This document shows, piece after piece, positions 1-64,000 of a stretch of 64,000 nt of DNA. Position numbers and translations under genes: made by a program. The stretch spans positions 52,004,372 through 52,068,371 of the forward strand of contig CM051518.1 in NCBI GenBank assembly GCA_028015205.1, written 5' to 3'. The notes under the pieces are model-generated. The model saw only the letters and a list, made by a program, of their open reading frames with translations. It was not told where the DNA came from and searched no databases. Source of the stretch: Mytilisepta virgata (Eukaryota; Mollusca; Bivalvia; Mytilida; Mytilidae). The stretch's first letter is position 1; each line of letters begins with the position of its first letter.

Positions 1-360
1 TGTTTTTTATGCCTATCTGAAATTCAAGATGGTCGCCACAGACAGATTGGACGCTATGAGGAAATTTGTAGAAAGGTCTTTTTGTCAGAAAATACTAAGC
101 CAATTGAAATGTTTTTGTTGCATGAAGATCCTTGGATAAATGTCTGCTCCAACAGTTATGTTTTTGTGCCGATCGGAATCCAAGCTAGCTGCCACAGCTG
201 AAATAATTTTAACATTGGACATTGGAAGAATTATTTACATATCTATTCTAGAAGTGCTGGGCACAGTAGAACAGTTTTTACAGATCTTATGTAGAAGCGC
301 TTTGTCAGTTGTTGTCACCTAAAATCCAGGTGAGCGATTCAGGCTTTATGGAGCCTCTGG
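1..360 (+). mobile_element. Family A element, 3' end (5' part off window)
   Basis: Aligns with 24175-24447: the same monomers (CTAAGCCAATTGAAATG, GATGGTCGCCAC, TTTAACATTGGAC). It ends in CCAGGTGAGCGATTCAGGCT and a hairpin (AGGCT paired with AGCCT), flanked by a T-run. Bases 88-113 are the empty site of the short element at 24008-24170. Confidence 0.8.
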
Positions 361-865
361 TTTTTATAAATTTCTGATACGACAATTCAGAGTTATGGAA
401 CTTTATTAGTTGAAAAGTGTCAATTTTTCACACTTTGGACGGTTATGGAGTTTTATTCCTTCAAATTTCAGAGTTATGGAACTTTGTTCATTAAAAAAGG
501 GGAAATTTTTCACTTGTCACGCTGTATCTTATGAACGCATTGTCCGATTTACTTAAACTTTACAGAGTTGTTTGTTGTGATAGTCTAAAGGTCTTTATAT
601 TTTTTGGTGAAATTTCGATTTTATGTTCTAGAGTGTGATGTGACTTATTCATCAAAAATAAGGAACAAAATCAAAGGGTCTATATGTTAATTGGTGAAAT
701 TTAATTTTCTGGACGACAGGCATATCATGCGCTCATGGCACAGCAGTTTATTGTACTTTTGTGCCACATTCCTTATGTTTTGAATTTATATGCAGGCTTG
801 TAAAGACAACTATATTTAATAAGTGAAATTATCACCTTAATTTAAGTAGTTTATTTTTTTTTCAG
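361..865. other. Intergenic or intronic sequence with a short repeat
   Basis: Carries degenerate copies of CAGAGTTATGGAACTTT (about 390-490), probably an old dispersed repeat. No exon of DNMT3 was found here. Confidence 0.4.
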
Positions 866-920
866 TGTGTTTTGCATGGATTGCATAAAACTGTTTTTAG
901 GACGACATCATATAGAAGAG
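866..920 (+). CDS. DNMT3: DNMT3 exon: ADD domain, CMDC zinc-ligand segment
   Basis: 55-bp exon after a T-rich tract and CAG; donor GTCAGT. It enters with one base of a split codon and reads VFCMDCIKLFLGRHHIEE, matching the ADD region just before the DPWxCxxC segment of DNMT3 proteins. The small size makes it easy to miss. Confidence 0.85.
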
Positions 921-61606: not shown

Positions 61607-61637
<31 letters not shown>

Positions 61638-61686
61638 ACGCAAAGTGATGAGAATAGCTCACATGGCCTTTTAGGCCAGGTGAGCT
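59174..61686 (-). mobile_element. Family A element with ~169-bp units and a 676-bp duplication
   Basis: On the - strand: 5' AGCTCACCTGGCC...GGCCATGTGAGCT (61686 back), a CGTC microsatellite (about 61600-61635), units with ATGGCCGCCATGGCTGGACT, GTTAAACTAAGTCC complements and CCATAGGCTCAATG complements, 3' TGCAGGTGAGCGATACAGG, hairpin GGCTCTTTAGAGCC, CTCTAG. Lies upstream of the first visible PCNX exon, in an intron. Confidence 0.83.
60200..61560. repeat. Higher-order repeat, 676-bp four-unit block present twice
   Basis: Positions 60281, 60291 and 60601 recur at 60957, 60967 and 61277, always +676 (four units of 169). The two blocks differ at only a few bases, while units within a block differ a lot. 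Confidence 0.9.
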
Positions 61687-64000
61687 AAAAAAGCCAAAAA
61701 TGTCAAAAAAAGGGTGATAACTCTGAAATGAGTGGTTGGATCTTCTTCAAAATTTCAGGGCAGGTAGATCTTGAGGTGCTGATCACTTTTACCCTATGCC
61801 AGAATTTTGATATCTGTGACTGTTTCTGACTTATTTGCAAAAAACTGCGATTTACCCCTATGTTCTATTTTTAGCCATGACGGCCATGTTTTTATACGAA
61901 TCAAAAATCCAAACAATAGATTTGTAGCACCCATACCAATTAATAACTGTACCAAGTTTGGTTGCAGTTGGACTTATGGTGTTGGAGGAGTTAACGTTTG
62001 AAAAAGTTAACGGACGACGGACGGACGGACGGACGGACGACGGACGGACGGACGGACGACGGACGGACGACGGACGCCAAGTGATAGCAATAGCTCACAT
62101 GACCCTTCGGGTCAGGTGAGCTAAAAAGGGCAATAACTCTAACATCAGTTGACAGATTTTCACGAAAATCAGCACACAGGTAACTCTCATCATGCTGAAC
62201 ACTTTCAACTTGCCAGAATTTGCCGTAACCTAATGATTTTTGAGATATTTGCGCAAAACTGTTGTTTGACCCCTATGTTCTATTTTTAGTAACAGTGGCC
62301 ATGTTTTTCGACGGATCAAAAATCGAAGCATAAACTTTGTGCAGGATACCCTAAGGAACAATCTTACCAAGTTTCATTGGATTTTGAATAGTAGTTTCAG
62401 AGAAGAAGATTTTTGAAATAATAACATAAAAAAAAGCCAAAAATGTCAAATAACTCCTAAAAGGAACGAACCTACAACTTCGATCCTGTTACAAATTTTG
62501 TAGATCTTTGTGTGCCTAACAATATGCAATTTAAATTTTTCAAATTTCCTTTATAGTATCCAAGATATTGAGCTTAATAAGTGCAAAATTTGGAAAAAAT
62601 GCAGAAAAAGGGCAACAACTCCTACATGGGTCGTTGGATCTTCTTCAAAATTTCAGGGCAGGTAGATCTTGAGGTGCTGATCACTTTTACCCTATGCCAG
62701 AATTTTGATATCTGTGACCGTTTCTGACTTATTTGCAAAAAACTGCGATTTACCCCTATGTTCTATTTTTAGCCATGACGGCCATGTTTTTATACGAATC
62801 AAAAATCCAAACAATAGATTTGTAGCACCCATACCAATTAATAACTGTACCAAGTTTGGTTGCAGTTGGACTTATGGTGTTGGAGGAGTTAACGTTTGAA
62901 AAAGTTAACGGACGACGGACGGACGGACGCCAAGTGATAGCAATAGCTCACATGACCCTTGGGGTCAGGTGAGCTAAAAAGGGCAATAACTCTAACATCA
63001 GTTGACAGATTTTCAGGAAAATAAGCACACAGGTAGCTCTCATCATGCTGAACACTTTCAACCTGCCAGAATTTGCCATAACCTAATGATTTTTGAGATA
63101 CTTGCGAAAAACTGTTGTTTGACCCATATGTTCTATTTTTAGTAACAGTGGCCATGTTTTTTAACGGATCAAAAATCGAAGCATAAACTTTGTGCAGGAT
63201 ACCCTAAGGAACAATCATGCTAAGTTTTATCCAAATCCATTCAGCAGTTTCAGAGGAGATTTTTGAAATAATAACATAAAAAAAAGCCAAAAATGTCCAA
63301 AAAAAATCAAGAAAAAGGGCAATAACTCCTACATGGGTGGTTACATCTTCTTCAAAATTTCAAAGCAGGTAGATCTTGAGGTGTTGAACACTTTAGCTTC
63401 CCATCAGAATTTTGATATCTGTCACCATTTTTGAGTTATTTGCAAAAAACTGCAATTTACCCCTATGTTCTATTTTTAGCCATGGCAGCCATGTTTTTTT
63501 ACAAATCAAAAATCCAAACGACAGTTCAGTAGCACTCATGCCAAGGAACAACTACACTAAGTTTGGTTGCAGTTAAACTTATGGTGTAAGAGGAGTTAAC
63601 GATTTTATTACAATGAATAAAGACTGCAAAAATGGTCAATTCTGACGATCTAAGGGGAATAACTCCTAAAAGGAACGAACATACAACTTCGATCCTGTTA
63701 CAAATTTTGTAGATCTTTGTGTGCCTAACAATATGAAATTTAAATTTTTCAAATTTCCTTTATAGTATCCAAGATATTGAGCTTAATAAGTGCAAAATTT
63801 GGAAAAAATGCAGAAAAAGGGCAATAACTCCTACATGGGTCATTGGATCTTCTTCAAAATTTCAGGGCAGGTATATCTTGAGGTGCTGATCACTTTTACC
63901 CTTAGCCAGAATTTTGATATCTGTGACCGTTTCTGACTTATTTGCAAAAAACTGCGATTTACCCCTATGTTCTATTTTTAGCCATGACGGCCATGTTTTT
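61687..64000 (-). mobile_element. Cluster of family A elements in - orientation, partly duplicated
   Basis: 5' ends on the - strand at 62122 and 62975 (AGCTCACCTGACCC...GGGTCATGTGAGCT) follow GTCC-rich microsatellites. Monomers with AAAACATGGCCGTCATGGCT repeat. A block at about 61700-62000 recurs 898 bases on (61807 against 62705) almost unchanged; a third related block runs from 63330 off the window. No 3' hairpins, so individual limits are unclear. No PCNX exon found here. Confidence 0.7.

What the first reader, a model, noticed from the sequence alone, without database searches (positions are those of the whole stretch)
1..64000. Five unrelated repeat families share one element grammar: 5' hairpin, CGTC microsatellite, tandem core, 5'-complementary word, 3' hairpin
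Seen directly: family A (AGCTCACCTGG / CCAGGTGAGC, hairpin GGCTC..GAGCC), B (GTGTCGCCTGCGGAC / GTCCGCAGGCGACAC, hairpin GTCTTCCTTGGAAGAC), C (ATACCCCACG / CGTGGGGTAT, hairpin GTGAGCACGCTCAC), D (GTCTCGC word at both ends, hairpin GGGTTCCGCGGAACCC) and E (ATACGACCGCA / TGCGGTCGTAT). The sequences are unrelated but the order of parts is the same, and D, B and nested A copies lie in T- or A-runs without visible duplication. Known: Helentrons and their non-autonomous relatives (including pearl-type bivalve elements) have asymmetric terminal inverted repeats, a 3' hairpin, T|T insertion and ~160-bp tandem cores. Inference: all five are non-autonomous Helentron-like families with different end codes, mobilised by different Rep/helicase partners, and the end word may be a specificity key. 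Family D has a direct rather than inverted word, which may be a separate variant.
Basis: partly seen in the sequence, partly recalled or inferred. Interest (0 to 1): 0.9.

Follow-up and report, generated by a model that had tools for sequence, protein, structure and literature searches.

The report
Five rolling-circle hitchhiker families, one grammar
Five repeat families with unrelated sequences share one end-and-core layout, the layout already published for passengers of rolling-circle jumping genes called Helentrons; intact Helentron genes sit in the same genome and likely move these families, but no exact partner for any of them was found.

Summary
Families A-E each carry a terminal word, a nested 5' inverted repeat, a CGTC/CGT-type microsatellite, a tandem core, a 3' word and a 3' palindrome. 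B, D and E are genome-wide families: B's word 1,157 exact sites, D's 3' end 1,220 and 5' end 890, E's 3' end 6,399, control 0 each (A and C not counted). Empty sites for three B copies and the D copy show no duplication beyond T's, with 5-6 extra T's. TTWTT stands directly 5' of 40 of 45 distinct ends. This is the published HINE/DINE-1 anatomy, including many end words in one oyster genome (PMC4067079, PMC7492417), so the grammar is not new. D is no separate kind: its direct word is the right arm of the 5' repeat; its outer arm is diverged. Intact Helentron-type Rep/helicase/endonuclease genes exist. Two of them end in palindrome-CTCTAG|TT, like a further family F and a third of the A 3' ends read, unlike B-E. 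In the Rep loci held, no B-E end was seen and A ends only as separate copies, so partner-by-word specificity stays untested.

The parts
15701..16774 (+). Family B element: 5' word GTGTCGCCTGCGGA with nested GTGTCG..CGACAC, CGTCTTG-type microsatellite, 165-bp core, 3' word GTCCGCAGGCGACAC, palindrome GTCTTCCTTGGAAGAC, end CACA|TTTTT
   Evidence: genome copies
38178..39097 (-). Family C element, copy 1; a further C 5' end stacks at 39637. The true 3' end may lie about 9 nt further out: both C copies share TTCTTTAATT
47888..48975 (-). Family C element, copy 2
44146..45435 (-). Family D element nested in the core of E; empty array unit has T7, filled site T5|D|T7
42069..46573 (-). Family E element (5' perfect inverted repeat TATACGACCGCAAA..TTTGCGGTCGTATA, 3' word TGCGGTCGTAT, imperfect palindrome GCTGCGCCCAGCGGAGC), interrupted by D
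31596..33181 (-). Family A element, complete; ends palindrome-CTCTTG|TTT
20481..24447 (+). Family A-type 5' end and 3' end about 4 kb apart, probably composite
7804..11167 (+). Family A 5' end with 13.7-copy core and three successive A 3' ends (10296, 10432, 11167)
59174..62975 (-). Family A stack: three 5' ends (62975, 62122, 61686) and one 3' end (59174, CTCTAG|TTT); two of the 5' ends sit in the core T pad ATTGCCCTTTTT
27645..28475 (+). Family A 5' end with degraded 3' end
5700..5712 (+). Family A-type 5' end inside the core T pad ATTGCCCTTTTT

Best explanation
A-E are five families with the published HINE anatomy (non-autonomous relatives of Helentrons), likely mobilised in trans by Helentron Rep-helicase-endonuclease proteins through a predicted rolling-circle mechanism. 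Shown: the layout, the copy numbers of B, D and E, TTWTT-type T-rich insertion sites, empty sites without duplication (B, D), and intact Helentron-type genes in the same genome. Inferred: the Rep would nick at the 5' T junction, the 3' palindrome would stop the copy, and the product would be joined into a T-run. The word would be read by the Rep together with the 3' palindrome; this step is untested. Nested copies would arise because the cores carry T-runs that are themselves landing sites (seen: D in E's core, A 5' ends in A-type cores).
For: Layout. Genome-wide counts, control 0. Both ends of D travel together in 82 of 100 listed copies; 19 of 31 B 3' ends in the loci held have a B 5' end within 3.5 kb. 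Empty sites: B in L017 against two L018 paralogues, B in L005 against an L005 paralogue, B in L008 (right half compared by eye), D in the E array; T gain 5, 5, 6 and 5. TTWTT directly 5' of A 17/18, B 18/21, C 2/3, D 2/2 (one a diverged D-like end in L013) and E 1/1 distinct ends; background 1.2% per position. Helentron-type Rep motif RGSPH in 28 of the 35 Rep loci held, RG[L/Q]PH in 7; Rep+PIF1+endonuclease in three ORFs of 1893, 2074 and 2398 aa; the 1893-aa protein matches proteins of zebrafish, amphioxus and a clam.
Against: No autonomous element was found with an A-E word at its own end. The two Helentron 3' ends read here (L062, L063) finish CTCTAG|TT, which fits part of the A copies but not B-E. 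No 5' word complementary to the 3' word was found for these two: the 5' boundary shared by both L062-type copies is a bare T-run, and L063's 5' end lies outside the sequence held. D's outer 5' arm does not match its 3' word, and D's inverted word is within chance (80/1000). The fifth candidate empty site (L009) was uninformative.
Confidence: 0.88

Rival explanations
1. Cut-and-paste MITEs with a 5-bp T-rich target duplication: each insertion would duplicate TTWTT.
For: The net gain is 5 bases at three of the four empty sites and 6 at the fourth, and the 5' flank is a TTWTT 5-mer in 40 of 45 distinct ends.
Against: In L017 the left 5-mer is TTATT and the right one TTTTT, so at most TT is duplicated. 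B has exactly four T's on the right in 11 of 31 copies although the left has exactly five in 13 of 21. The ends are asymmetric, with the palindrome only at the 3' end.
Confidence: 0.06
2. Each end word is a specificity key read by its own Rep lineage, so the five families have five separate partners.
For: The words are unrelated. The genome holds many Rep genes (150 scored matches of 317 candidates). The 3' termini fall into two kinds: CTCTAG|TT in F, the two Helentrons read and part of A, and other termini in B-E.
Against: No Rep element with an A-E word at its own end was found. PMC4067079 reports (nearly) identical subTIRs shared by diverged Helentrons. Shared TTWTT sites point to common chemistry.
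Confidence: 0.3
3. The shared layout is mere satellite-like tandem repetition with chance flanking words.
For: Some HINE cores in the oyster are related to satellite DNA (PMC7492417).
Against: Hundreds to thousands of end copies with control 0, and precise ends at empty sites.
Confidence: 0.02

Closest known systems
Cg_HINE elements of the Pacific oyster (PMC7492417; parts 1-2 of 7 and passages read)
   Same: 5' subTIR, 5' IR complementary to it, microsatellite (GTCY/GTCC/GTCK in several), tandem core mostly 140-180 bp, 3' subTIR and palindrome; 11 families, some unrelated, in one genome; TT-preferring insertion, no duplication; autonomous partner unresolved there too
   Different: Sequences were not compared (figures and supplement not read); here intact Helentron genes and two of their 3' ends were read from the same genome, and D breaks the subTIR match at two fixed bases
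DINE-1 / HINE and Helentrons (PMC4067079; results parts 1-2 of 3 and passages read)
   Same: subTIRs, IR nested in the 5' subTIR, microsatellite, central repeats, 3' stem loop, T-flanked insertion without duplication; Rep motif RGSPH and C-terminal endonuclease in the autonomous elements
   Different: There the partners share ends with the HINEs; here that link was not found
pearl-type bivalve elements (re-categorised as non-autonomous Helentrons, as reported in PMC7492417)
   Same: tandem cores between conserved ends
   Different: not compared by sequence here
Canonical Helitrons
   Same: F, the two Helentrons and part of A end in CTAG before T, which fits a 3' CTRR-type end (recalled rule; PMC4067079, names CTAG for the Phytophthora proto-Helentron)
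   Different: T-rich TTWTT site rather than A|T, 5' subTIR with nested repeat, Helentron-type Rep motif

Membership tests
HINE (non-autonomous Helentron) | subterminal inverted repeats of about 11-15 bp | tested here: met
   A 10, B 14, C 10, E 11 contiguous bp. D on its own is inconclusive: imperfect, 6 of 8, with two central bases fixed as GA in 99 of 100 listed copies
HINE (non-autonomous Helentron) | 5' inverted repeat nested in or next to the subTIR | tested here: met
   A 7, B 6, C 7, E 14 bp; D has TTCGAC..GTCGAA (6 bp) plus GCGAGAC
HINE (non-autonomous Helentron) | microsatellite then tandem core | tested here: met
HINE (non-autonomous Helentron) | 3' palindrome near the end | tested here: met
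   A 6, B 7, C 7, D 8 bp stems; none perfect in E, where 6 of 7 pairs hold by eye
HINE (non-autonomous Helentron) | insertion in T-rich sequence without target duplication | tested here: met
   three B and one D empty sites, TTWTT flanks; A, C and E have no two-sided empty site
HINE (non-autonomous Helentron) | autonomous partner with Rep/helicase/endonuclease and the same ends | tested here: inconclusive
   Rep genes present; 38 loci (L029-L066) rescanned: no B-E end, A ends only in L032, L038, L062, L065, L066; own 3' ends known for two elements
HINE (non-autonomous Helentron) | rolling-circle transposition | not testable with these tools
   needs a transposition assay
Canonical Helitron | insertion between A and T, Rep motif RGLPH | tested here: not met
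   TTWTT sites of A-E; the Rep ORFs with an endonuclease are RGSPH
MITE with fixed target duplication | target-site duplication | tested here: not met
   L017 filled TTATT|B|TTTTT, empty TTATT; at most TT could be duplicated

The most novel reading that the evidence does not exclude
The genome runs at least two end-recognition systems at once: intact endonuclease-bearing Helentrons and families A and F terminate at a palindrome followed by CTCTAG|TT, whereas B-E would be read by another Rep lineage with other termini; all of them land at TTWTT, and their T-rich tandem cores serve as landing pads on which later families stack.
Probability: 0.28. Interest if true: 0.55.

Novelty: new member of a known kind. 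Interest (0 to 1): 0.36.

Why it matters
PMC7492417 could not relate any of its 11 oyster HINE families to an autonomous Helentron. A genome that holds intact Helentron genes beside thousands of HINE copies with several end words makes the question of what a Helentron Rep recognises directly testable, by matching Rep clades to end words.

Tried and rejected
D as a separate direct-word kind: rejected. The right arm of the 5' repeat repeats part of the 3' word directly in the other families too (B 8 bp, E 11; A and C 6, a length that shuffles often reach).

A ends near the L062 Rep ORF as sign of an A partner: not accepted. An A 5' end (L065:3663) and an A 3' end (L062:2472) bracket 4.8 kb upstream of the ORF, with no ORF of 150 aa or more inside, so this reads as a nested A copy; the element's own 3' end is different. 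The first scans had missed the 5' end.

Counting error found and mended: scripts used a best-match flag that can skip hits. Plain mismatch scans replace their counts (for example B pairs 18 to 19, C TTWTT 1/2 to 2/3). From the A hits six were dropped (five are the reverse reading of A's own hairpin, one is the reverse of an A 3' end) and one degraded A 5' end in L066 was added as a miss; one E hit was dropped as the reverse of its own hairpin.

Autonomous ends by searching complementary words around the ORFs of L059-L064: nothing convincing. L059's 3' end lies beyond the 14 kb held. A DNA search with L061 gave no clear 3' boundary; that with L064 did not complete.

D 5'/3' pairs 2-25 kb apart as autonomous candidates: one at 2.0 kb, none beyond, among the listed places.

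Papers on partners: a search for Helentron + autonomous partner + subTIR listed only PMC4067079; passages of PMC8268682 and PMC11136912 name no partner. This is no proof that none is published.

Full report
What was checked. The window lies in a 1.03-Gb genome in 109 contigs. B's word occurs 610+547 times exactly. At <=2 mismatches D's 3' end occurs 609+611 times, D's 5' end 429+461 and E's 3' end 3164+3235; the reversed-pattern control is 0 in each. A and C could not be counted because the search machine did not answer. In the loci held, A has 18 distinct 5' ends; C is known only from the window (three 5' ends, two 3' ends).

Anatomy. In the 5'-3' direction of each element: a T-run; the 5' word; a nested inverted repeat; a CGTC/CGT-type microsatellite; the core; the 3' word; a palindrome; T's. 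Longest complementary words are A 10, B 14, C 10, E 11 and D 7 bp; shuffles reach these in 2, 0, 1, 0 and 80 of 1000. The right arm of the 5' repeat is a direct copy of part of the 3' word in A (6 bp; 387 of 1000 shuffles reach this), B (8; 25), C (6; 376) and E (11; 0). D's outer arm reads GTCGAGCC, which differs from the complement of its 3' word (GTCTCGCC) at two central bases; 99 of the 100 listed genome copies have GA there and 1 has TA (the listed copies match exactly outside the two open positions). I read D as a HINE-like family with a diverged outer arm.

Ends travel together. Of 100 listed D 3' ends, 82 have a listed D 5' end on the same strand at 420-2002 bp, median 929, clustering near 800, 930, 1090 and 1280. 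Of 31 B 3' ends in the loci held, 19 have a B 5' end within 3.5 kb.

Insertion. D sits in the E array: three intact units read T7, the filled site T5|D|T7. B in L017 reads TTATT|B|TTTTTG, and two L018 paralogues read TTATTG; B in L005 has T5|B|T4 against T4 in a paralogue; B in L008 has T5|B|T8 against T7 (right half compared by eye); L009 was uninformative. The gain is 5, 5, 5 and 6 T's (D, L017, L005, L008). L017 limits any duplication to TT. B's 5' flank is exactly five T's in 13 of 21 copies; its 3' flank has at least four T's in 29 of 31. Directly 5' of the elements stands TTWTT in A 17/18, B 18/21, C 2/3, D 2/2 (one a diverged D-like end) and E 1/1 distinct ends, 40 of 45 in all, against 1.2% per position. 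PMC4067079 and PMC7492417 describe TT/T-rich sites without duplication, the first also a variable number of T's; TTWTT is a sharper form of this, for which I did not search the literature.

Nesting. D lies in E's core. Three A 5' ends (62975, 62122, 5700) sit in the pad ATTGCCCTTTTT of A-type cores; 13 other copies of this pad in the window are intact. The L062 Helentron abuts the core of a further family F, with 36 other places at 98-99% identity, a lower bound because few candidates were scored. The core's T-runs thus act as landing sites; that this is why cores persist is speculation.

Autonomous elements. A Helitron_like_N search gave 150 scored matches out of 317 candidates, many in frames of 1,400-2,900 aa. 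Three ORFs hold Rep, PIF1 helicase and endonuclease domains: L062 1893 aa, L063 2074 aa, L059 2398 aa; L061 and L064 show Rep and helicase but no endonuclease hit. The Rep motif is of Helentron type (RGSPH) in 28 of the 35 Rep loci held and RG[L/Q]PH in 7 (rule from PMC4067079). The L062 protein matches proteins of zebrafish, amphioxus and Ruditapes among 303 hits (120 listed). Two copies share 13.5 kb around L062 at 99%; where they part the 3' end reads GTATTCGTGCGAATAC-ATTCCTCTAG|TT. Around L063 four copies at 100% stop matching at 8975-8991; I place the 3' end at 8973, GTGTTAATGATAACAC-TGCTCTAG|TT, taking the next bases as shared T-rich flank, which is inference. L063 also has short partial copies that reach the same 3' end. 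F finishes CCTCTAG|TT. Of 16 A-type 3' ends (15 places; L065 and L066 are copies) the bases after the hairpin are CTCTAG in 5, CTCTTG in 3, CTCTAA, CTCTGG, CTGTGG and ATATTG in one each, and no such hairpin in 3 places. B, C, D and E finish otherwise. A rescan of loci L029-L066 found no B, C, D or E end at the set thresholds and A ends in L032, L038, L062, L065 and L066. These I read as separate A copies; in L062/L065 they bracket 4.8 kb without an ORF of 150 aa, upstream of the Rep ORF. Only two Helentron 3' ends and no complete Helentron 5' end are known, so the absence of a partner is weak evidence.

Known or new. The layout is the published HINE/DINE-1 layout, and PMC7492417 already reports 11 families in one oyster, some with unrelated ends, also without identified partners. 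I therefore file A-E as new members of a known kind.

Noticed in passing
L062:8683-9190 and 36 other places: Family F: very young (98-99% identical) repeat with 3' end AGTCCAGCATGCTGGACT..CCTCTAG|TT and a tandem core; the L062 Helentron abuts its core
   Followed up: partly
L059/L060 (C7:22360200-22374199): Helentron-type element over 14 kb with OTU protease, Rep, helicase and endonuclease in one 2398-aa frame and at least eight other copies at 96-99%; its 3' end was not reached
   Followed up: partly
L039-L057 (C4, C6, C10, C11, C14, C26, C33): Rep genes in frames up to about 2,900 aa, many with KYATDEEHRKNV-like repeats before the Rep domain, clustered locally (for example C11:28.7-28.9 Mb)
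   Followed up: no
L061:800-6346: 1849-aa Rep/PIF1 protein without an endonuclease hit and with a weak Herpes_teg_N match at its N-terminus
   Followed up: no
L013:3529: Diverged D-like 5' end (3 of 24 mismatches) after a T-run, with a different right arm (GCTCAAC)
   Followed up: no
window 37810-38109 (-): Exon that reads like a MYCBP2/PHR-type E3 ligase segment (recalled resemblance, no search)
   Followed up: no
window 14441-14866 (+): Open frame that resembles a retroelement integrase fragment (recalled resemblance, no search)
   Followed up: no
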